Source: Oscillatoriales cyanobacterium
Lineage (GTDB): Bacteria; Cyanobacteriota; Cyanobacteriia; Cyanobacteriales; Microcoleaceae
Assembly: GCA_004293365.1 (NCBI GenBank)
Contig: RDYN01000006.1
Coordinates: 62,001-126,000 of the forward strand
Reading direction: 5' to 3'
Length of the DNA: 64,000 bases
Positions 40,021 through 48,257 of this stretch are shown piece by piece (position 1 is the stretch's first letter; every line of letters starts with the position of its first letter). Made by a program: the position numbers and the translations under genes. Below the pieces are notes generated by a model. The model saw only the letters and a list, made by a program, of their open reading frames with translations, did not search any database and had not been told where the DNA came from.

Positions 40021-41031
40021 CTAATTAGGTAGAGAATAACCAAAAGCAGTTTTAACCTTATTCAAAGTTTGGTTGGCAATAGTTTCTGCTTGTTCTCTTC
40101 CTTCACGGAGTACAGATTCTAGATATCCCGGTTCGTCCATTATTTCTTTGTATTTATCCTGAATTGGTTTGAGGGCATTAATTGTCGTCTCTGTCAACAA
40201 TGGTTTGAAATCTCCCCAACCCATGTTTTCACATTCGGCTGCGACTTCTTCCTTGGATTTGCCGGAAAGCAGGAGGTAAAGTGTTAGCAAATTTCTCGCT
40301 TCGGGGCGATCGGGGTCGTCGAAAGTTAAGCCCCGCACGGCATCTGTTTTGCAGCGCTTGATTTTTTTGGCGATCGTATCTGGCGAATCTAATAAGTTAA
40401 TTCGACTTTGTTCGGAAGGGTCGGATTTTGACATTTTGCGCGTGCCGTCAGTCAAACTCATCACCCTCGCGCCGTCTGTGCGAATTAAGGGTTCGGGTAG
40501 TTTCAAAACTGGTTTTTCTGGTGTGCCAAATTGGTGATTTAATCTGATGACGATATCGCGGGTGAGTTCCAAATGCTGTTTTTGGTCTTCTCCTACTGGC
40601 ACTTTGTCGGCATCGTAAAGCAAGATGTCTGCTGCCATCAACACGGGATAGTTTAGCAAGCCTGCGTTGACATTTTCGCCTTGTTTAACTGCTTTTTCTT
40701 TAAATTGAATCATATCTTGGAGCCAGTTAATCGGCGTAATGCAGTTGAGCAGCCATGCTAGTTCTGTGTGCGCCGAGACGTGGGATTGGACGAAAATAGT
40801 AGAATATTCTAAATCGATGCCGCAAGCTAAATAGAGGGCGGCGATGGTGTAAGTGTCGGAGGCTAGGGTTGCTGGATTGTGCGGTGCGGTAATTGCGTGC
40901 AAATCTACTACGCAAAAGTAGTTTTCGTACTGGCTTTGACCTTCTACCCAGTTGCGAATGGCTCCGAGATAGTTACCGAGGTGTAGATTGCCTGTTGGCT
41001 GAACTCCTGAAAGAACGCGCTGTTTGCCCAT
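40021..41031 (-). CDS. trpS: Tryptophanyl-tRNA synthetase
   Basis: TrpRS charges tRNA-Trp. From ATG 41031 the 336 residues include the HIGH-type motif (PTGNLHLGNYLGA), HTELAWLLNCITP, GVDLHAIT-like VDLHAITAPHNPA, MAADILLYDADKVPVGEDQK and the KMSKS loop with RKMSKSDPSEQSR. All motifs are intact. An earlier ATG at 41058 adds nine residues. TrpRS is essential and this copy looks functional. Confidence 0.96.
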   Translation of the reverse strand: MGKQRVLSGVQPTGNLHLGNYLGAIRNWVEGQSQYENYFCVVDLHAITAPHNPATLASDTYTIAALYLACGIDLEYSTIFVQSHVSAHTELAWLLNCITPINWLQDMIQFKEKAVKQGENVNAGLLNYPVLMAADILLYDADKVPVGEDQKQHLELTRDIVIRLNHQFGTPEKPVLKLPEPLIRTDGARVMSLTDGTRKMSKSDPSEQSRINLLDSPDTIAKKIKRCKTDAVRGLTFDDPDRPEARNLLTLYLLLSGKSKEEVAAECENMGWGDFKPLLTETTINALKPIQDKYKEIMDEPGYLESVLREGREQAETIANQTLNKVKTAFGYSLPN

Positions 41032-41239
41032 GAGGAAAGAATAGAATTGAAGTCTCATTTCTATATTGACACGTTATTTAGATTTAAGATACTTTTGGTT
41101 AAAATTTACATTTTGCACCATTGTCAGCAACGCTGCTCAAAGCCCGTTCCACTTTTCAGACATCTTTCGGGAGACGGCATTGTTCGTTAGTGTCAATTTT
41201 AGGTCTTATGTATTACAGATCTACTGGCTGACGATTAAG

Positions 41240-41345
41240 GTTAGATCCCCCCTAGCCCCCCTTCTTAAGGGGGGGACAAGAAGCGATCGAAGTCAACCCC
41301 TACTCCCCTTTTTAAGGGGGATTTAGGGGGATCTGGCCTCGGGTG
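41240..41345. repeat. CCCCCTAGCCCCCCTTCTTAAGGGGG repeat block
   Basis: AGATCCCCCCTAGCCCCCCT then CTTCTTAAGGGGGGGACAAG, an ACCCCTACTCCCCTTTTTAA and GGGGGATTTAGGGGGATCT. The arms pair into a large imperfect hairpin. The family recurs at 48.87-49.14 kb and inside the hemY coding region near 62.8 kb. Confidence 0.9.
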
Positions 41346-41420
41346 AAAGCGAAATTTCTAAGGTTTAAGACTTAAGTTGACACGACGAAAGGCATTGGCG
41401 TGTCCTTAGCTTGAAAGCAA

Positions 41421-42536
41421 TTACCAATCTGTCAGCAACCTTGCTTTTCGCAACACAAATGTGAGGACGGTTTCTTGGCCGGTAATAATATCGGCTCTGC
41501 CCTCCATTCCCGCTTGAATTGAATACTGGCGGGGGACATTTGCCTGGGAGTTTCCTAAGAATTGACCGCTGGTGGAGTTGAGTTTTGTTAAATAGGTTTG
41601 TTGGGGTTTAATTGCTACTTCGTAATATGCTGTACCTAAATTGTTACCGGGATTTTGAGGGGCGATCGCATCTGGGGCGATCGCGCTGACTGTTCCTTTG
41701 AGTGTCCCGTAATCTGGGAAGGGTAAGGCGGAAATCCTGATCTGTACGGATTGGCCGATTTGGATGCGGGCGATGTCTTGGGAGGTGACTTTGGCTTTGA
41801 CTACTAAGGGTACGTCGCTGGGGACGATTTGGGCGATCGCAGTACCGGCTTGTACGGTTTGACCGGTGTTTTGTACTTCCAATCTGAGAATTGTACCATC
41901 AGCGGGGGCGCGGATAACGCTATTTTCGAGTTTTGACTCAATTTGATTGAGTTCTTTTTTAGCTTGAATTAATTGTTGTTGAATGGACGATCGCTTGACA
42001 AGCAAAACCCGCCGACTTCTGCCGAGTCTCTCGGCGACATCGGGCTGCGATGTGGCGATTTTGACAAGAGCGGACTCGACTACTTCCTGGGCGGCAGAAT
42101 TTTGTGTTTGGATGGTTTGAAATTGGCCGCTGGCTAAAATTTGATTTTCTAAGTCCCGCAGTTGTTGGTTGATTTGCCCTGCTGCTGTTTGAGACTGATT
42201 GATTATGTCTTGGAACTGCTTTTTTTGAGCGCCCAAACGCGAAGCGTCTACAACTGCGATCGCATCTCCGGCTTTTACTGTCTGATTTTCGGTGACAGCA
42301 ATGCTTTCGACGCTTCCTTCGGTTGCTGCTTGCACGACGCGCACTTCTCCTGCTGGACGGACGATCGCGTCTGCTTTGACTGTAGCACTGTATTTGGTGA
42401 CGCTGGCAAGGGCGATCGCCCCACCAAACGTGGCCACCATCAAAATTCCCCCCAAAGTCGTCCAGCGGCTGACAGGGGGCAAAAACTGGTCGTTATCAAA
42501 GGTTTCTGCGGGCATGGGTTCGGTAGTGCGAGGCAT
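41421..42536 (-). CDS. HlyD-family membrane fusion protein of the peptide exporter
   Basis: This periplasmic adaptor links an inner-membrane ABC exporter to an outer-membrane channel. The 371-residue protein has a short cytoplasmic start, one anchor at about residues 28-50 (LGGILMVATFGGAIALASVT), the biotinyl-lipoyl halves VVQAATEGSVESIAVTENQT and SVIRAPADGTILRLEVQNTG, a coiled coil between them and a C-terminal beta barrel. It is divergent from the precursor peptides and lies 6-7 kb before the exporter's end. An outer-membrane TolC partner is not in this window. Confidence 0.9.
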   Translation of the reverse strand: MPRTTEPMPAETFDNDQFLPPVSRWTTLGGILMVATFGGAIALASVTKYSATVKADAIVRPAGEVRVVQAATEGSVESIAVTENQTVKAGDAIAVVDASRLGAQKKQFQDIINQSQTAAGQINQQLRDLENQILASGQFQTIQTQNSAAQEVVESALVKIATSQPDVAERLGRSRRVLLVKRSSIQQQLIQAKKELNQIESKLENSVIRAPADGTILRLEVQNTGQTVQAGTAIAQIVPSDVPLVVKAKVTSQDIARIQIGQSVQIRISALPFPDYGTLKGTVSAIAPDAIAPQNPGNNLGTAYYEVAIKPQQTYLTKLNSTSGQFLGNSQANVPRQYSIQAGMEGRADIITGQETVLTFVLRKARLLTDW

Positions 42537-42988
42537 GGCGGCTGTTGGGGGTGAGGGGAATTGTTTTGAATTTTAAGTTTTGAATTCGGGGAAAGAGAAT
42601 CGTTGTGAGTTTTAATGCCAGTTCCAAAAAAGAATGCAACTCGCTGCCAACTCCAAAGCCTTATTAAATAAGTCATTCTCAAACCTCAAACGGTATGAGT
42701 TGGAAGAAGGAGAGATCGATCGCCTATTTCTTCGATCGCATTTATTTTCGAGCTTTCCGGACACCAAGCATAAGTTTAGAAGTCTCAATCAAAATTCACA
42801 GGGTTAAGGTCAAAATCCGCACAGCTTTGCCTTCGCCACCCGGAAATTTTCTCAAACATCAAGAATCGTGCAGCCAGCGGGCAACAGTCAGAAAAATAGA
42901 GCGTTTCCGCCATGATTTTTGGCGCTGTTACCCGGTTTTTCTGCGACGTGTACGTAAGTAACTATATATGTCTTAATAGGAGTTCCTT
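42537..42988 (+). promoter_or_regulatory. Divergent intergenic region of the peptide cluster
   Basis: 450 bp without a gene. It must hold divergent promoters for the HlyD gene and the first precursor. AGGAGTTCCTT just before ATG 42989 contains a good ribosome-binding site (AGGAG, seven to eight bases before ATG). An apparent ORF at 42695-42961 has no recognisable sequence. I could not place a -35/-10 pair with confidence. Confidence 0.5.
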
Positions 42989-43213
42989 ATGCCGGACAAT
43001 CAACAAAATTCACTTTTTAGCGAACTAACCGATCGAGAATCAGAAATGGTCAACGGTGGCAGCACTACCAGCGGTTTCAGCAGTGATAACAGTAACAGCG
43101 ATACCAAGAACAGCAGCAATGGCATCAATACGCTGTTTTTCGTGCCACAGCCGAGCCAGCTTTTCCTTTACGATCCGATTCGCGATCGCCCTTACAAAAC
43201 CCTTGTAGTCTAG
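42989..43213 (+). CDS. Double-glycine leader peptide precursor 1
   Basis: The 74-residue peptide has an N-terminal leader NSLFSELTDRESEMVNGG with the GG cleavage motif preceded by the E-L-x(7)-V-x-GG pattern read by C39 peptidases. The predicted core is Ser/Asn-rich (STTSGFSSDNSNSDTKNSSN), then a hydrophobic tail with LFFVPQPSQLFLYDPIRDRP. This core differs from the two cationic peptides downstream. A strong AGGAG site precedes the ATG. It is probably the first gene of the row exported by the 44.1-kb transporter. Confidence 0.8.
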   Translation: MPDNQQNSLFSELTDRESEMVNGGSTTSGFSSDNSNSDTKNSSNGINTLFFVPQPSQLFLYDPIRDRPYKTLVV

Positions 43214-43385
43214 ATAGCTAAGTCAAGTAGTGCGATCGGATAAATCTTAAAAGTTTCTCAGTAATATTCCGGGCGATCGCAGAGGCATGGAGAAGTATTA
43301 GTTAGTAATCATACGAGGCTATCGAAATTATATAAAGTTTCTAGTTTTCGTTCAATATCATCAACTTAAATGGAGTCAAATCATC

Positions 43386-43571
43386 ATGCAAGAAACAAAG
43401 GAAAATTCACTATTTGCTGAACTCACCCCTGAAGAATCAGCTAGCGTTAACGGCGGTTGCTACTCTTATTCCGAGCGTGGCGACAACTATCGCCGCCGGC
43501 GCCGTTGGGTCGTGTATCGCCGCAATTGCGACGGTTCCTTCAGAAGAGTCGTTCGCTACGGCTACTGGTAA
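43386..43571 (+). CDS. Double-glycine leader peptide precursor 2 (cationic)
   Basis: The 61-residue peptide has leader NSLFAELTPEESASVNGG and a predicted 37-residue core starting CYSYSERGD. The core is very basic and aromatic (RRRRRWVVYRRNCDGSFRRV, ending RYGYW), with 12 Arg and two Cys. Such a composition suits an antimicrobial or membrane-active peptide or a signal. A GGAG site lies in AAATGGAGTCAAATCATC before ATG. It is copy 1 of the 410-bp duplication. Confidence 0.85.
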   Translation: MQETKENSLFAELTPEESASVNGGCYSYSERGDNYRRRRRWVVYRRNCDGSFRRVVRYGYW

Positions 43572-43798
43572 AGTTTAGTGCTGTGAATGCCGCGATCGCC
43601 CTGATTACAAAACCCTAATAGTCTAGATAGGTGAGTCAGGTAGTGCGATCGGGTGAATTCTCAAAACTTCTCAGTGGTATTCCGGATGAACTCAGAGGCA
43701 TTGAGAAGTATTAGTCAGTAATTACACGAGGCTATCGAAATTAGATAAAATTTCTAGTTTTCGTTCAATCTCATCAATTTAAATGGAGTCAAATCATC

Positions 43799-43990
43799 AT
43801 GCAAGAAACAAAAGATAACTCATTGTTTGCTGAACTCACCCCTGAAGAATCAGCTAGCGTCAACGGCGGTTACTACTATGCCGATCGCTATTATGGTGGC
43901 GACAACTGTCGCCGTCGGCGCCGTTGGGTCGTGTACCGCCGCAATTGCGACGGTTCATACAGAAGAGTAGTTCGCTACGGCTACTGGTAA
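43799..43990 (+). CDS. Double-glycine leader peptide precursor 3 (cationic, duplicate)
   Basis: The 63-residue peptide shares the leader (QETKDNSLFAELTPEESASV then NGG) and the basic core end (RRRRRWVVYRRNCDGSYRRV, RYGYW). Only the first part of the core differs: YYYADRYYGGDNC versus CYSYSERGDNY, so the first Cys has moved. The upstream region is also duplicated, so the two genes likely share promoter elements. It ends just before the terminator at 44033. Confidence 0.85.
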   Translation: MQETKDNSLFAELTPEESASVNGGYYYADRYYGGDNCRRRRRWVVYRRNCDGSYRRVVRYGYW

Positions 43991-44032
43991 AGTTTAGTGC
44001 TGTCAATTCAGCTCTATAACTGTGGAATCGAG

Positions 44033-44062
44033 AAAGCACCCATAACTTTATGGGTGCTTTTT
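44033..44062 (+). terminator. Rho-independent terminator after precursor 3
   Basis: AAAGCACCCATA and TATGGGTGCTTTT form a 12-bp stem with an ACTT loop, followed by more T residues. It separates the precursors from the exporter ATG 36 bp later, so the exporter may depend on read-through or a separate promoter. Confidence 0.9.
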
Positions 44063-44097
44063 GCTGATTGGGTAGTCGGTGATGAGTAATCTTCTGT

Positions 44098-46335
44098 ATG
44101 CTCTACCATTATTCATTTTGCAAAATGTTAAAGAACATCCCTTTTATCGGCAAAATGCCCTTATTCGGACAAGTCAACAGGTTTAAGAAATATCAGGTTG
44201 TACTCCAGCAGAGCGAGGAAGACTGCGGGGCGGCTTGTTTGGCTTCGATCGCGAAATTTTACGGACAAAATTTTACTATTAGCCGTTTGCGAGAGTCTGC
44301 GGGTACAGGTCAAAAAGGGACGACTCTGCTGGGCTTGAAACAAGGTGCTGAGGCGGTGGGCTTTAACGCTCGATCCGTGCGAGCAGCGGCTGCTATTTTA
44401 GACAAAATTGATGAAGCACCTTTACCCGCAATTATTCACTGGAGCGGGTACCACTGGGTGGTTTTGTACGGAAAGCAGGGCGACAAATATGCGATCGGCG
44501 ATCCGGCTGTCGGTATGCGCTATATTTCCAAAGAAGAATTAGCAGCAGGTTGGACAGATTGGCTGTGCTTGCTAGTAGACCCAGATCCCGATCGATTTTT
44601 TGCAGAAGCAGACGGCCAACCGCCCGCCAATTCCTTGCAAAAATGGATGCGCCGGGTTTGGATTTACCGCCAGCTTTTAATGGAAGCACTGTTGATGAAT
44701 GTGGTGTTGGGTTTGCTGTCGATTGCTTCACCTTTTCTCGTACAACTGCTCACCGATGACATTTTGGTGCGGGGCGACACGCAACTTTTGGCAAGTGTGG
44801 CGATCGCAGTTATAGTTATGAACCTATTTAGCAGCAGTTTAGGATTGGTACAGTCCAACTTAATTGCTCAATTTTCCCAGCGTTTAGAGTTGGGATTGGT
44901 CATGGAATTCGGGCGCAAATTCCTGCGATTGCCTTTAAGCTTTTACGAAACCAGACGCAGCGGCGAAATCGTCAGTAGATTACAAGACATCCAAGAAATC
45001 AATAAATTAGTTTCTCAATTTGCGATCAGCTTACCAAGTCAATTTTTTATAGCTGTAGTTTCTTTTATTTTCATGTTATTTTACAGCAAAGAACTGACGC
45101 TGGCAGCTACAGTCATCGCTGTGTTCATGACTGCCTCTACAATAGTTTTTCTGCCCGTATTGCAGCAAAAAACGCGGAATTTATTTGTACTGGAAGCAGA
45201 AACTCAAGGCGTTTTAGTAGAAACCTTTAAAGGCGCGCTGACAGTCAAAACGACTAGCAGCGCCCAGCAACTTTGGGAAGAATTTCAAGGTCGCTTCGGT
45301 CGCTTAGCGAGTCTGACTTTTCGCACTACACAAATCGGCATTCTCAACAACATTTTTTCTGGCTTTGTTGCTTCAGCGGGTAGCATTACCCTGTTGTGGT
45401 TGGGCAGCACTTTGGTAATTGACAAGGCATTGAGTATCGGTCAGTTGCTAGCATTTATTAGCATGAATCAAAACGTTACTACTTGGGTTACTTCCTTAGT
45501 CGAATGTACTGATGAAATGGCTCGCGTTCAGACAGCAACTCAACGGCTTTCCGAAGTCATAGATGCTGAGCCAGAAAGTAAAAGCGATATTAATAAACCT
45601 GTGGTAACGCTTCAAGACCGCGACGAAATTGTTTGCAAGAGTGTGAATTTTCACTACCCAGGCAGACTTGACTTGCTGGAAAATTTTTCTGTGACGTTTC
45701 CGGGCGGTCACGCAATTGCTTTAATCGGTTATTCTGGTTGCGGCAAAAGTACGCTAGCTAAGATAATTGCTGGTTTGTATCCGCTGCAATCTGGTAATGT
45801 GAGAATTGGCGGTTACAATTTGCAGGATTTGTCTCTCGATTGTCTCAGACAGCAGGTGGTTCTTGTTCCCCAAGAAGCTCATTTCTGGAGCCGTTCGATT
45901 CTCGATAATTTTCAATTGGGGAGTCCCGATGTTACTTTTGAACAGATTGTGAAAGCTTGCAAAATTGCCGGGGCGGATGAATTTATCAGCCAATTACCTG
46001 ATAAGTATCAAACTGTTTTAGGAGAGTTTGGGGCGAATATTTCTGGGGGACAAAGACAGAGATTGGCGATCGCCCGCGCCATTCTCAACAACCCGCCCGT
46101 ATTGATTTTAGACGAATCTACCGCAGGGCTAGACCCCGCCAGCGAAGCAGAAGTGTTGGAGAATTTGTTGATGTACCGGCAGGGGAAAACTACGATTTTT
46201 ATCAGTCACAGGCCGCGAGTGATCGATCGCGCCGATTGGATTATCATGTTAGAACGTGGTCGGTTGAAACTGCAAGGATCTGCTGCAAAATTGCGATCGA
46301 TTCCCGGAGATCACTTAGAGTTTTTGGAACCTTAA
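44098..46335 (+). CDS. C39-peptidase ABC exporter (PCAT) for double-glycine peptides
   Basis: PCATs cleave leaders after Gly-Gly and export the core. The 745-residue protein has an N-terminal C39 domain with C43 in QQSEEDCGAACLA, H119 in SGYHWVVLYG and D135 in IGDPAVG. A six-helix transmembrane domain spans residues ~190-480. The ATPase has Walker A GYSGCGKST (about 543-551), signature SGGQRQRLAIARA (~650) and Walker B LILDESTAGLD (~673), then H-loop SHRPRV. All catalytic residues are intact. ATG 44125 is an alternative start nine codons inside. It lies downstream of the three GG precursors. Confidence 0.95.
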   Translation: MLYHYSFCKMLKNIPFIGKMPLFGQVNRFKKYQVVLQQSEEDCGAACLASIAKFYGQNFTISRLRESAGTGQKGTTLLGLKQGAEAVGFNARSVRAAAAILDKIDEAPLPAIIHWSGYHWVVLYGKQGDKYAIGDPAVGMRYISKEELAAGWTDWLCLLVDPDPDRFFAEADGQPPANSLQKWMRRVWIYRQLLMEALLMNVVLGLLSIASPFLVQLLTDDILVRGDTQLLASVAIAVIVMNLFSSSLGLVQSNLIAQFSQRLELGLVMEFGRKFLRLPLSFYETRRSGEIVSRLQDIQEINKLVSQFAISLPSQFFIAVVSFIFMLFYSKELTLAATVIAVFMTASTIVFLPVLQQKTRNLFVLEAETQGVLVETFKGALTVKTTSSAQQLWEEFQGRFGRLASLTFRTTQIGILNNIFSGFVASAGSITLLWLGSTLVIDKALSIGQLLAFISMNQNVTTWVTSLVECTDEMARVQTATQRLSEVIDAEPESKSDINKPVVTLQDRDEIVCKSVNFHYPGRLDLLENFSVTFPGGHAIALIGYSGCGKSTLAKIIAGLYPLQSGNVRIGGYNLQDLSLDCLRQQVVLVPQEAHFWSRSILDNFQLGSPDVTFEQIVKACKIAGADEFISQLPDKYQTVLGEFGANISGGQRQRLAIARAILNNPPVLILDESTAGLDPASEAEVLENLLMYRQGKTTIFISHRPRVIDRADWIIMLERGRLKLQGSAAKLRSIPGDHLEFLEP

Positions 46336-46344
46336 AAACTTGTA

Positions 46345-46625
46345 GATAAGATAAGACGGCGGTTAGAAACCGCGCCGACACAAACGAAGTTGAATAAGAT
46401 AAGACGGCGGTTAGAAACCGCGCCGACACAAACGAAGTCCGCCTCCGCGGACTGAAGAGAATAAGGTAATTTTAACCGCAGACTCTTCATCTTCAACCCG
46501 CGCACCATCCGGGTTTTGTTTGTATCGACGCGGTTTCCAACCGCCCGGTATTTTTATCTTCAACCCGCGCACCATCCGGGTTTTGTTTGTATCGACGCGG
46601 TTTCCAACCGCCGGGTATTTTATCT
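46345..46625. repeat. Two nested tandem repeats of the GCGGTTAGAAACCGC family
   Basis: AAGATAAGACGGCGGTTAGA..GAAGT occurs twice from 46346 and 46395 (49-bp period). TCTTCAACCCGCGCACCATC..CCG recurs twice from 46490 and 46557 (67-bp period). GTCCGCCTCCGCGGAC lies between. The family also occurs near 0.8 kb and 53.0 kb. Confidence 0.9.
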
Positions 46626-46643
46626 CACCGCCCGTCTTCTCAA

Positions 46644-48257
46644 TTAATGAACCCGACAAACAAGCGGAATCGCCTCCTGATTTTCCAGCACCAAACCGTA
46701 CTCCAAACCCTCAACAACAGCCTGACAAGAAGCATCCAAAATATTACCAGAAACCCCAACCGTCGTCCAACGATCGTGGCCGTTACTAAACTCAACCAAC
46801 ACGCGAGTTTTAGCAGAAGTACCCGCACCAGAATCCAGAATTCGCACCTTGTAATCTGTTAAGTAAAAATGCGCTATCGCCGGATAAAAATTCACCAAAG
46901 CTTTCCGCAAAGCCGCATCCAAAGCCGAAACCGGGCCGTTTCCTTCCGCGCATTCCAGAATAATTGTACCGTTGACTGACAATTTCACAGTTGCCAAAGC
47001 CGTACAATCTTCGCCAACCTTATCGCAGTGGACTTGAAATCCCGTAATTTCAAACCAGCGCTGTCGCTGCGACAAAGCCTCCCGCATCAACAATTCAAAA
47101 GACGCCTCAGCGCCCTCAAATTGATATCCCTGACTTTCCAAATCTTTCAATTTTTGCAGAATTTGGCGGCAAGCAGGATTTTTGCGATCGAGTTCAATAC
47201 CAAAAGTCTTAGCCTTCGCCAAAACATTACTCAAACCCGATTGATCCGAAATCACAATTCGCCGGATATTGCCGATTTTTTGCGGTTCCAAATGTTCGTA
47301 AGTTAACGGATTTTTCTCAACCGCCGATACATGAATTCCGCCCTTATGAGCAAAAGCCGAAAGACCGACAAAAGGAGCGTGATCGTCGGGAGCAAGGTTA
47401 ACAATTTCGCTGACAGATCTACTGACTTGAGTTAATTTCGCTAATTGCTCATCTTGAATGCAATCATAACCCAACTTGAGCTGAAAATTAGGAATCAAGG
47501 AACACAAATTAGCATTACCGCAGCGTTCGCCATAACCGTTAATAGTTCCCTGTACCATCGTCACGCCTTCCCGCACACCAGCCAAAGCATTAGCAACGGC
47601 AACTCCAGAGTCGTTGTGAGTGTGAATTCCTAACTGTAAGGATTGGGCGCGCTCTGTTCCCAAAGCTGCTAAAACATCGCGAACAACTTGACTGACTTCG
47701 TGAGGCAAAGTGCCGCCGTTAGTATCGCAAAGTACCAGCCATTCTGCACCGGCATCCGCCGCCGCTGCTAAAGTTTTAATTGCATAATCGGGATTGTGCT
47801 TGTAGCCATCAAACCAGTGTTCCGCATCGTAAATAACGCGCCTTCCCTGACTCCGCAAATATTCAATTGTATCTCGAATCATCGCCAGATTTTCTTCTAG
47901 CGTCGTCTTCAAACTTTCAATTACGTGCAAATCCCACGACTTGCCAAACAGCGTTACCCAGCGAGTCCCCGCAGACAAGATAGGCTGCAACATTTCATCA
48001 TTAGCTGCCGTTTTTCCCGGTCGTCTGGTCGAACAAAAAGCGACAACTTCTGCTTGAATTAATGGCTGTTCTTTGAGCCGCCAAAAAAATTGTACGTCTT
48101 TAGGATTTGCTCCCGGCCAGCCACCTTCAATAAACGGAATTCCTAAACTGTCTAACTGTCGAGCAATTCGCACTTTGTCTTCGAGAGATAAGCAGAGTCC
48201 CTCGCACTGAGCGCCGTCTCGCAGCGTGGTATCGTAGATCCAGAGCCGATTTGTCAT
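46644..48257 (-). CDS. cimA: (R)-citramalate synthase
   Basis: CimA condenses acetyl-CoA and pyruvate to citramalate, giving a threonine-independent route to isoleucine. From ATG 48257 the 537 residues include the DRE-TIM pattern IYDTTLRDGAQCEGLCLSLE, WPGANPKD, GIHTHNDSGVAVANALAGVR, NGYGERCGNANLCSLIPN and the LeuA regulatory tail (AGTSAKTRVLVEFSNGHDRW). Length and motifs fit the long cyanobacterial CimA. The 14 extra codons up to 48299 are not conserved-looking. Confidence 0.92.
   Translation of the reverse strand: MTNRLWIYDTTLRDGAQCEGLCLSLEDKVRIARQLDSLGIPFIEGGWPGANPKDVQFFWRLKEQPLIQAEVVAFCSTRRPGKTAANDEMLQPILSAGTRWVTLFGKSWDLHVIESLKTTLEENLAMIRDTIEYLRSQGRRVIYDAEHWFDGYKHNPDYAIKTLAAAADAGAEWLVLCDTNGGTLPHEVSQVVRDVLAALGTERAQSLQLGIHTHNDSGVAVANALAGVREGVTMVQGTINGYGERCGNANLCSLIPNFQLKLGYDCIQDEQLAKLTQVSRSVSEIVNLAPDDHAPFVGLSAFAHKGGIHVSAVEKNPLTYEHLEPQKIGNIRRIVISDQSGLSNVLAKAKTFGIELDRKNPACRQILQKLKDLESQGYQFEGAEASFELLMREALSQRQRWFEITGFQVHCDKVGEDCTALATVKLSVNGTIILECAEGNGPVSALDAALRKALVNFYPAIAHFYLTDYKVRILDSGAGTSAKTRVLVEFSNGHDRWTTVGVSGNILDASCQAVVEGLEYGLVLENQEAIPLVCRVH

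What the first reader, a model, noticed from the sequence alone, without database searches (positions are those of the whole stretch)
42989..46335. Three double-glycine peptides with duplicated, Arg/Trp/Tyr-rich cores beside a C39 exporter
Precursors 2 and 3 have near-identical leaders (ELTPEESASVNGG) and cores with RRRRRWVVYRRNCDG and a YGYW end. Precursor 1 has a related leader (ELTDRESEMVNGG) but a very different Ser/Asn-rich core. The exporter has an intact C39 triad (C43, H119, D135). No LanM, YcaO or radical-SAM enzyme is nearby. Compared with known families, this could be an unmodified cationic microcin-like or biofilm-signal set (cf. EbfG/PteB in Synechococcus elongatus); the specific core is not one I know.
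Basis: partly seen in the sequence, partly recalled or inferred. Interest (0 to 1): 0.85.

Follow-up and report, generated by a model that had tools for sequence, protein, structure and literature searches.

The report
Secreted tyrosine/arginine-rich cyanobacterial peptides
Cyanobacteria of the Microcoleus group carry a conserved set of small peptides, most of them rich in tyrosine and arginine and nearly free of lysine, beside a pump predicted to trim and export them; they may be an extracellular glue, a coat or an antimicrobial, and no function has been tested.

Summary
In detail: three 24-residue double-glycine leaders with 50-, 37- and 39-residue cores lie upstream of a C39 exporter with triad C43/H119/D135. 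P2 and P3 are copies of a ~413-bp tandem block that starts inside the 3' end of P1. P1, P2-type genes and the exporter are each matched in 28 of 29 same-genus genomes (one P2 broken, some contigs cut). No convincing conserved immunity gene lies between them. The P2/P3 core is a variable Tyr-rich head plus a conserved tail predicted, at modest confidence, as a beta-hairpin. New here: related cores change in sequence but keep their chemistry. In 74 cores of two families I counted 672 Arg and 12 Lys (10 of the 12 in one subtype), Tyr about 20-37% by group, while P2-type leaders use Lys and no Arg. Exporter, adaptor and leader fit the known group III cyanobacterial 'bacteriocin' layout; the Tyr/Arg, Lys-poor core class was not found described in the searches made. 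I favour a self-associating extracellular matrix or adhesion peptide over a bacteriocin or signal, with moderate confidence.

The parts
41421..42536 (-). HlyD-family periplasmic adaptor (371 aa), divergent from the peptides; predicted part of the export path
   Evidence: Pfam HlyD_3 1.8e-20; TIGR01843 5.5e-45, below its cut-off; beside P1 in 23 of 27 same-genus loci, the other 4 ending at contig ends
42989..43213 (+). Precursor P1: 24-aa double-glycine leader, 50-aa Ser/Asn-rich core ending LFFVPQPSQLFLYDPIRDRPYKTLVV
   Evidence: matched in 28 of 29 same-genus genomes; tail also in genus g10 (hhalign 95%)
43192..43593 (+). First copy of the duplicated block (P1 3' end, spacer, P2)
   Evidence: repeat families D1, D2; alignment
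43386..43571 (+). Precursor P2: leader + 37-aa core, net +8
   Evidence: GGAG upstream
43605..44012 (+). Second copy of the block: remnant of the P1 3' end, spacer, P3
43799..43990 (+). Precursor P3: leader + 39-aa core, net +8; predicted beta-hairpin at core residues 17-24/30-37
44026..44069 (+). Terminator-like hairpin with T run between P3 and the exporter
   Evidence: -22.2 kcal/mol, z -6.3; the simple consensus scan listed no terminator here
44098..46335 (+). Peptidase-containing ABC exporter (PCAT), C39 triad C43/H119/D135
   Evidence: ortholog in 28 of 29 same-genus genomes, partial at contig or stretch ends in two

Best explanation
A PCAT + HlyD type I export cassette whose substrates are P1 and the P2/P3 family. 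Shown: genes, leaders, triad, conservation, duplication history, core composition. Inferred from PCAT biology: the C39 domain cuts after GG and the cores leave through PCAT, HlyD and an outer-membrane channel. Inferred function: the mature P2/P3-type cores are extracellular structural 'sticker' peptides. Tyr and Arg side chains associate with each other and with acidic sheath polysaccharide; a hairpin tail (this genus) or low-complexity Y/R stretches (related genera) favour self-assembly, so that filaments are glued into sheath or mat. P1, the neutral partner, is encoded with them throughout the genus and would act alongside.
For: Composition is kept while sequence is not: Y/R-rich cores in g1, g7/8/9 and g10 and family f32. 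Hand-collected set of 66 cores: 628 Arg, 5 Lys; P2-type leaders 48 Lys, 0 Arg. Fuller recount: 74 cores, 672 Arg, 12 Lys, after taking out one P1 relative the filter let through. Of 578 small ORFs in 38 loci, 55 reach 15% Y and 15% R and all 55 are precursors by inspection. In the 90-row exporter tree all 11 rows of one clade and all 5 of another have Y/R cores nearby, against 1 of the other 74. pN/pS 0.37 (hairpin) and 0.39 (P1 tail); no convincing conserved immunity ORF. Precedents: EbfG1-4 secretion depends on a C39 exporter and is needed for biofilm (PMC4997328), EbfG1-3 form amyloid (PMC9981879); in Lge1 1-80 R>K raises the saturation concentration about 10-fold and Y>A strongly impairs phase separation (PMC10406433).
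Against: No experiment, expression or localisation data. Arg with aromatics also suits membrane-active antimicrobial peptides. The hairpin is conserved in sequence within the genus, more than pure composition needs. AF2 confidence is modest (mean pLDDT 62). P1 is not Y/R-rich and got no confident fold (mean pLDDT 58): unexplained. One core subtype of related genera (YNE/YND...) holds 10 of the 12 Lys. The genome has three more C39 proteins, so this exporter's role is inferred from proximity. The wider neighbourhood is only partly conserved: trpS in 11 and cimA-like in 18 of 27 loci. EbfG sequences were not compared.
Confidence: 0.43

Rival explanations
1. Unmodified class II-like bacteriocin/microcin: the cationic hairpin P2/P3 (perhaps with P1 as a two-peptide partner) permeabilises competitors.
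For: Double-glycine leader, C39 exporter, net +8, Arg/aromatic composition, predicted beta-hairpin; P1 resembles NCBI 'CTB family bacteriocin' below cut-off.
Against: No convincing conserved immunity ORF; present in nearly every genome of the genus and under purifying selection; Tyr rather than Trp/Phe dominates (680 Y, 40 F, 44 W in the 66-core set).
Confidence: 0.31
2. Secreted signalling peptides sensed by the filaments, P1 or P2/P3 being the signal.
For: The P1 tail is conserved in this genus and recognisable in g10; PCATs export quorum-sensing peptides in Gram-positive bacteria (PMC10986499, start of abstract).
Against: No receptor, kinase or regulator domain in the 10 neighbours scanned; low-complexity Y/R cores of changing sequence in related genera suit composition-based function better than a receptor ligand.
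Confidence: 0.15
3. Post-translationally modified peptide: Tyr or Cys residues altered by an enzyme encoded elsewhere, or oxidised outside (dityrosine, DOPA, disulphide).
For: Tyr up to 44% of single cores; a head Cys and a turn Cys in many members.
Against: No maturase in the 10 neighbours scanned, no LanC-like gene in the genome; the turn Cys is F or R in several members.
Confidence: 0.1

Closest known systems
Cyanobacterial 'bacteriocin' gene cluster group III (Wang, Fewer and Sivonen 2011, PMC3140520; abstract, outline and Results section seen)
   Same: Short C39 ABC exporter plus HlyD plus several double-glycine precursors; no LanM among the neighbours
   Different: The main text does not mention Tyr/Arg-rich cores (words tyrosine, Tyr and arginine: 0 hits); its supplementary precursor table was not available
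EbfG1-4 / PteB of Synechococcus elongatus (PMC4997328 Results section; PMC9981879 abstract and one Results section)
   Same: Several small GG precursors beside a C39 exporter; a detected EbfG1 peptide just after GG is Tyr-rich; matrix role is the working model
   Different: Mature EbfG 6-7 kDa and reported there without homologues in other cyanobacteria; P2-type cores here are 28-49 aa, Arg-rich and Lys-poor
CTB family bacteriocin (NCBIfam NF038167)
   Same: Weak match of P1 (21.3 bits, cut-off 32, residues 6-42) and of 1 of 21 P2-type members (E 0.089)
   Different: Below cut-off; matches centre on the leader
Mussel foot protein-3 type adhesive peptides (composition only; PMC9845597 passages; natural mfp-3 composition recalled)
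   Same: Small, secreted, Tyr-rich, coacervating
   Different: No homology; the designed mfp-3S peptide quoted there is Gly/Asn-rich with one Arg; no DOPA-making enzyme known here

Membership tests
Group III cyanobacterial C39/HlyD precursor cluster | Short-type C39 ABC transporter (no N-terminal CAP_ED domain) | tested here: met
   745 aa, C39 at 31-162, no cyclic-nucleotide domain listed by Pfam
Group III cyanobacterial C39/HlyD precursor cluster | HlyD adaptor in the cluster | tested here: met
   41421-42536
Group III cyanobacterial C39/HlyD precursor cluster | No LanM and no second ABC transporter without peptidase nearby | tested here: met
   none in 10 neighbouring proteins; no LanC-like gene in the genome
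Group III cyanobacterial C39/HlyD precursor cluster | Transporter falls in clade III of the published tree | not tested
   reference transporters of that paper were not fetched
EbfG family | Sequence homology to EbfG1-4 cores | not tested
   EbfG sequences not fetched; PMC4997328 reports no homologues in other cyanobacteria
EbfG family | C39-dependent secretion and role in biofilm | not testable with these tools
   needs mutants and mass spectrometry
CTB family bacteriocin NF038167 | Score above curated cut-off (32 bits) | tested here: not met
   P1 21.3 bits; P2 and P3 no match at E <= 1
Microcin / class II bacteriocin | Cognate immunity gene beside the precursor | tested here: inconclusive
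   only the precursors stay open widely with a credible product; a 31-aa minus-strand frame over the terminator is open in 20 of 21 hit loci, judged non-coding; immunity could lie elsewhere
NHLP / Nif11 precursors | Nif11 or NHLP leader domain | tested here: not met
   no such family among Pfam, NCBIfam or PHROGs matches at E <= 1

The most novel reading that the evidence does not exclude
A class of secreted bacterial peptides selected for Tyr/Arg 'sticker' chemistry with Lys nearly excluded: they form extracellular condensates with acidic sheath polysaccharide and act as a mussel-foot-like glue in mat-forming cyanobacteria, delivered by what has been filed as bacteriocin export machinery.
Probability: 0.27. 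Interest if true: 0.85.

Novelty: new variant of a known kind. Interest (0 to 1): 0.57.

Why it matters
Cyanobacterial double-glycine peptides are commonly filed as bacteriocins without a test of function. Here a genus-wide set whose cores keep composition rather than sequence, and nearly exclude Lys while the leaders use it, gives a directly testable alternative: extracellular phase-separating or adhesive peptides that help build sheaths and mats. It would extend the EbfG/PteB matrix theme to filamentous mat formers.

Tried and rejected
Shared C-terminal hairpin of P1 and P2: P1's tail matches the g10 cores (hhalign 95%, E 3.5e-8), but P2 against g10 (E 0.019) and P2 against P1 (E 0.66) do not, and AF2 gave no hairpin for P1; dropped. 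PDB fold search with the P3 core: 77 matches with E <= 10, none with E <= 0.001. PRK08183/NDUFA12 hits (7 of 21 members, best E 0.0066) are far below cut-off (15 of 135 bits): compositional. Pirellulales hit L102 (1 of the 24 loci; DNA): taken as chance. Disulphide-held hairpin: turn Cys replaced by F or R in several members. Sigma-70 scan: 2 sites, shuffles 2.7. Rfam: none in 41000-47000.

Results against or limiting the reading. G002 (74% complete) has no P1 or P2 match and no exporter ortholog. G020's P2 frame holds two stops. P2 is cut in G007 and G015. In G011 a cyanobactin-type cassette lies between peptides and exporter. In three g7 genomes (L068-L070) precursors with HlyD and the exporter lie on different contigs. 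Many of the 46 of 148 genomes matched outside the genus match mainly through the leader; in the phylum sample only 16 of 291 genomes match at E <= 0.001, several by leader alone. On a second look the neighbourhood proved less fixed than I first wrote: trpS is seen in 11 and the cimA-like gene in 18 of 27 same-genus loci; trpS is missing despite at least 3 kb of flank in 9, the cimA-like gene despite at least 5 kb beyond the exporter in 3. I therefore moved the odds slightly (best 0.45 to 0.43, bacteriocin 0.30 to 0.31, novel case 0.28 to 0.27).

Rows chosen or dropped. The 13 g7/8/9 cores were picked by hand and missed cores (for example in L066, L071 and L213) that includes; the fuller count has more Lys (12, not 5). 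One P1 relative that passed the filter was taken out by hand (75 to 74 cores). In pN/pS, P2-type genes without a readable hairpin were left out (37 used). In the tree, exporters under 690 aligned columns and most same-genus rows were left out (90 of 109 rows used), and Y/R labels were set by hand. In the 80 exporter loci, Y/R-rich ORFs were found in 8; two of these (L175, L177) have no leader and were not counted as Y/R; L196 was added. 'None found' there means none within the fetched stretch by these patterns. Some rows of A2 were cut by a residue at one end. The binomial P treats related cores as independent and is not to be taken literally.
Full report
What is there. The window is part of a 7.3 Mb, 218-contig genome. 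Named records carrying the same peptides are Microcoleus, Tychonema, a Lyngbya and other Oscillatoriales or cyanobacterial MAGs (23 of 24 loci; the other, a Pirellulales, is taken as chance), so the genus is inferred to belong to the Microcoleus group. A divergent HlyD gene at 41421-42536 completes an export set. The best solved relatives of the exporter are 'ABC-type bacteriocin transporter' chains (E 5e-109); ComA and HlyB also appear. Each precursor has a GGAG-type sequence upstream, and a strong hairpin with a T run separates P3 from the exporter (-22.2 kcal/mol, z -6.3).

How the three peptides arose. The segment 43192-43593 is repeated at 43605-44012. The block begins inside P1: the P2-P3 spacer holds a copy of the last 22-33 bases of P1 with its stop region, starting at a GCGATCGC site. 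So the P2/P3 pair arose by tandem copying of a P1-tail, spacer, P2 unit. Where readable, other genomes of the genus show one to three P2-type copies, two with identical protein in L042; none is intact in G020.

Conservation. Among 148 relatives (own included), P2 is matched in 46 genomes, 28 of 29 in the genus; P1 in 31, again 28 of 29 in the genus; the exporter ortholog in 28 of 29. In 27 same-genus loci, HlyD stands divergently beside P1 in 23 (the other four end at contig ends), and the exporter is found in 25. The wider surroundings are partly conserved: a cimA-like gene beyond the exporter in 18 of 27, trpS beyond HlyD in 11 of 27, with clear absences in several loci. In G011 a cyanobactin-type cassette (ThcOx, PatG, S8 domains) lies in the about 15.6 kb between peptides and exporter. 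Pooled pN/pS is 0.23 for leaders and 0.37 for the 18-codon hairpin of 37 P2-type genes, and 0.39 for the P1 tail of 22 genes (uncorrected, pairs not independent). Of the small frames around the peptides, P1 (27 of 27 hit loci) and P2/P3 (25 of 26) stay open; a 31-aa frame over the terminator is open in 20 of 21 hit loci and is judged non-coding. No convincing immunity gene emerges.

The core. P2-type cores have a variable Tyr-rich head and a conserved tail, consensus WVVYRRNCDGSFRRVVRY. AF2 on the P3 core with 28 other rows gives strands 17-24 and 30-37 about the NCDG turn; mean pLDDT 62, 80 in residues 21-30; no convincing PDB match. The turn Gly is invariant in A2, the turn Cys is not. P1 has a conserved tail, LFFxPqPsQLYLYDPxRxRPYKTLVV; a Y/R-rich version occurs in genus g10. 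AF2 gives P1 no confident fold.

Composition is the constant. In a hand-collected set, 40 unique P2-type cores of the genus average Y 20%, R 25%, K 0.1%; 13 cores of g7/8/9 Y 30%, R 20%; 5 of g10 Y 21%, R 23%; 8 of family f32 hold 156 Y, 90 R and no K in 421 residues. Together 628 Arg and 5 Lys; P2-type leaders hold 48 Lys and no Arg; twelve window proteins hold 321 Arg and 242 Lys. A fuller automatic recount gives 74 cores with 672 Arg and 12 Lys, 10 of the 12 in a YNE/YND... subtype of related genera (one P1 relative removed by hand). Of 578 small ATG frames in 38 loci, 55 reach 15% Y and 15% R over the last 40 residues, all precursors by inspection. In 80 exporter loci, 14 of 1293 frames reached a similar threshold, in 8 loci, 12 of them with leaders. 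On a 90-row exporter tree the Y/R label falls on all 11 rows of the clade holding this genus (6 of them this genus), all 5 rows of an f32 clade and one further row (L196), and on none of the other 73. The exporter family is common (85 of 195 sampled genomes of the order at E <= 1e-150), and related exporters elsewhere have quite different cores behind a similar leader.

What it most likely does. Export and cutting after GG are inferred from PCAT biology and from PteB/EbfG, where the C39 Cys and the GG motifs matter for secretion and biofilm (PMC4997328, Results section) and EbfG1-3 form amyloid (PMC9981879, abstract and one Results section). Selection for Arg over Lys together with Tyr is what Tyr/Arg sticker chemistry would ask for: in Lge1 1-80, R>K raises the saturation concentration about tenfold and Y>A strongly impairs condensates (PMC10406433, passages). 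A Tyr-rich mussel-foot-derived peptide coacervates and adheres (PMC9845597, passages). I therefore favour extracellular self-association with the sheath (0.43), then antimicrobial (0.31), then signal (0.15); modification is possible under any of them.

Novelty. Exporter, adaptor and leader follow the known group III layout (PMC3140520); that EbfG/PteB belongs to the same group is likely but not stated in what I read. No Pfam, NCBIfam or PHROGs model credibly covers the cores. Paper searches listed no paper whose title or abstract start describes Tyr/Arg-rich C39 substrates in cyanobacteria; supplementary tables, including that of PMC3140520, were not available.

Noticed in passing
L041:224-8464: Cyanobactin-type cassette (ThcOx/PatG/S8 protease ORF, two DUF5838 ORFs, one with a methyltransferase domain) between the precursors and the exporter ortholog of G011, which lies about 15.6 kb away; part of that gap was not read.
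   Followed up: partly
window 46346-46438 and 46489-46625: Two short tandem arrays (48-bp and 67-bp units) between exporter and the cimA-like gene.
   Followed up: no
L049:7452-7652, L051:6898-7095, L052:7208-7414, L057:6086-6292, L059:2909-3127: A second core type in some genomes of the genus (...YSYxPYFDGR...), similar leader, also Tyr-rich with an FDG turn.
   Followed up: partly
L058:6804-6971: P2-type frame with two stop codons while P1 and the exporter are intact.
   Followed up: no
L068, L069, L070: In genus g7 the Tyr/Arg precursors and HlyD lie on another contig than the exporter, which has further leader matches beside it.
   Followed up: partly
L109, L196: Tyr/Gly-rich cores ending in a TTxVNVxxxD-like tail behind a similar leader in families f9 and f28.
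   Followed up: no
G000: C49, C21, C140: Three further C39-domain proteins in the same genome, two of them in open frames of about 1000-1070 aa.
   Followed up: no
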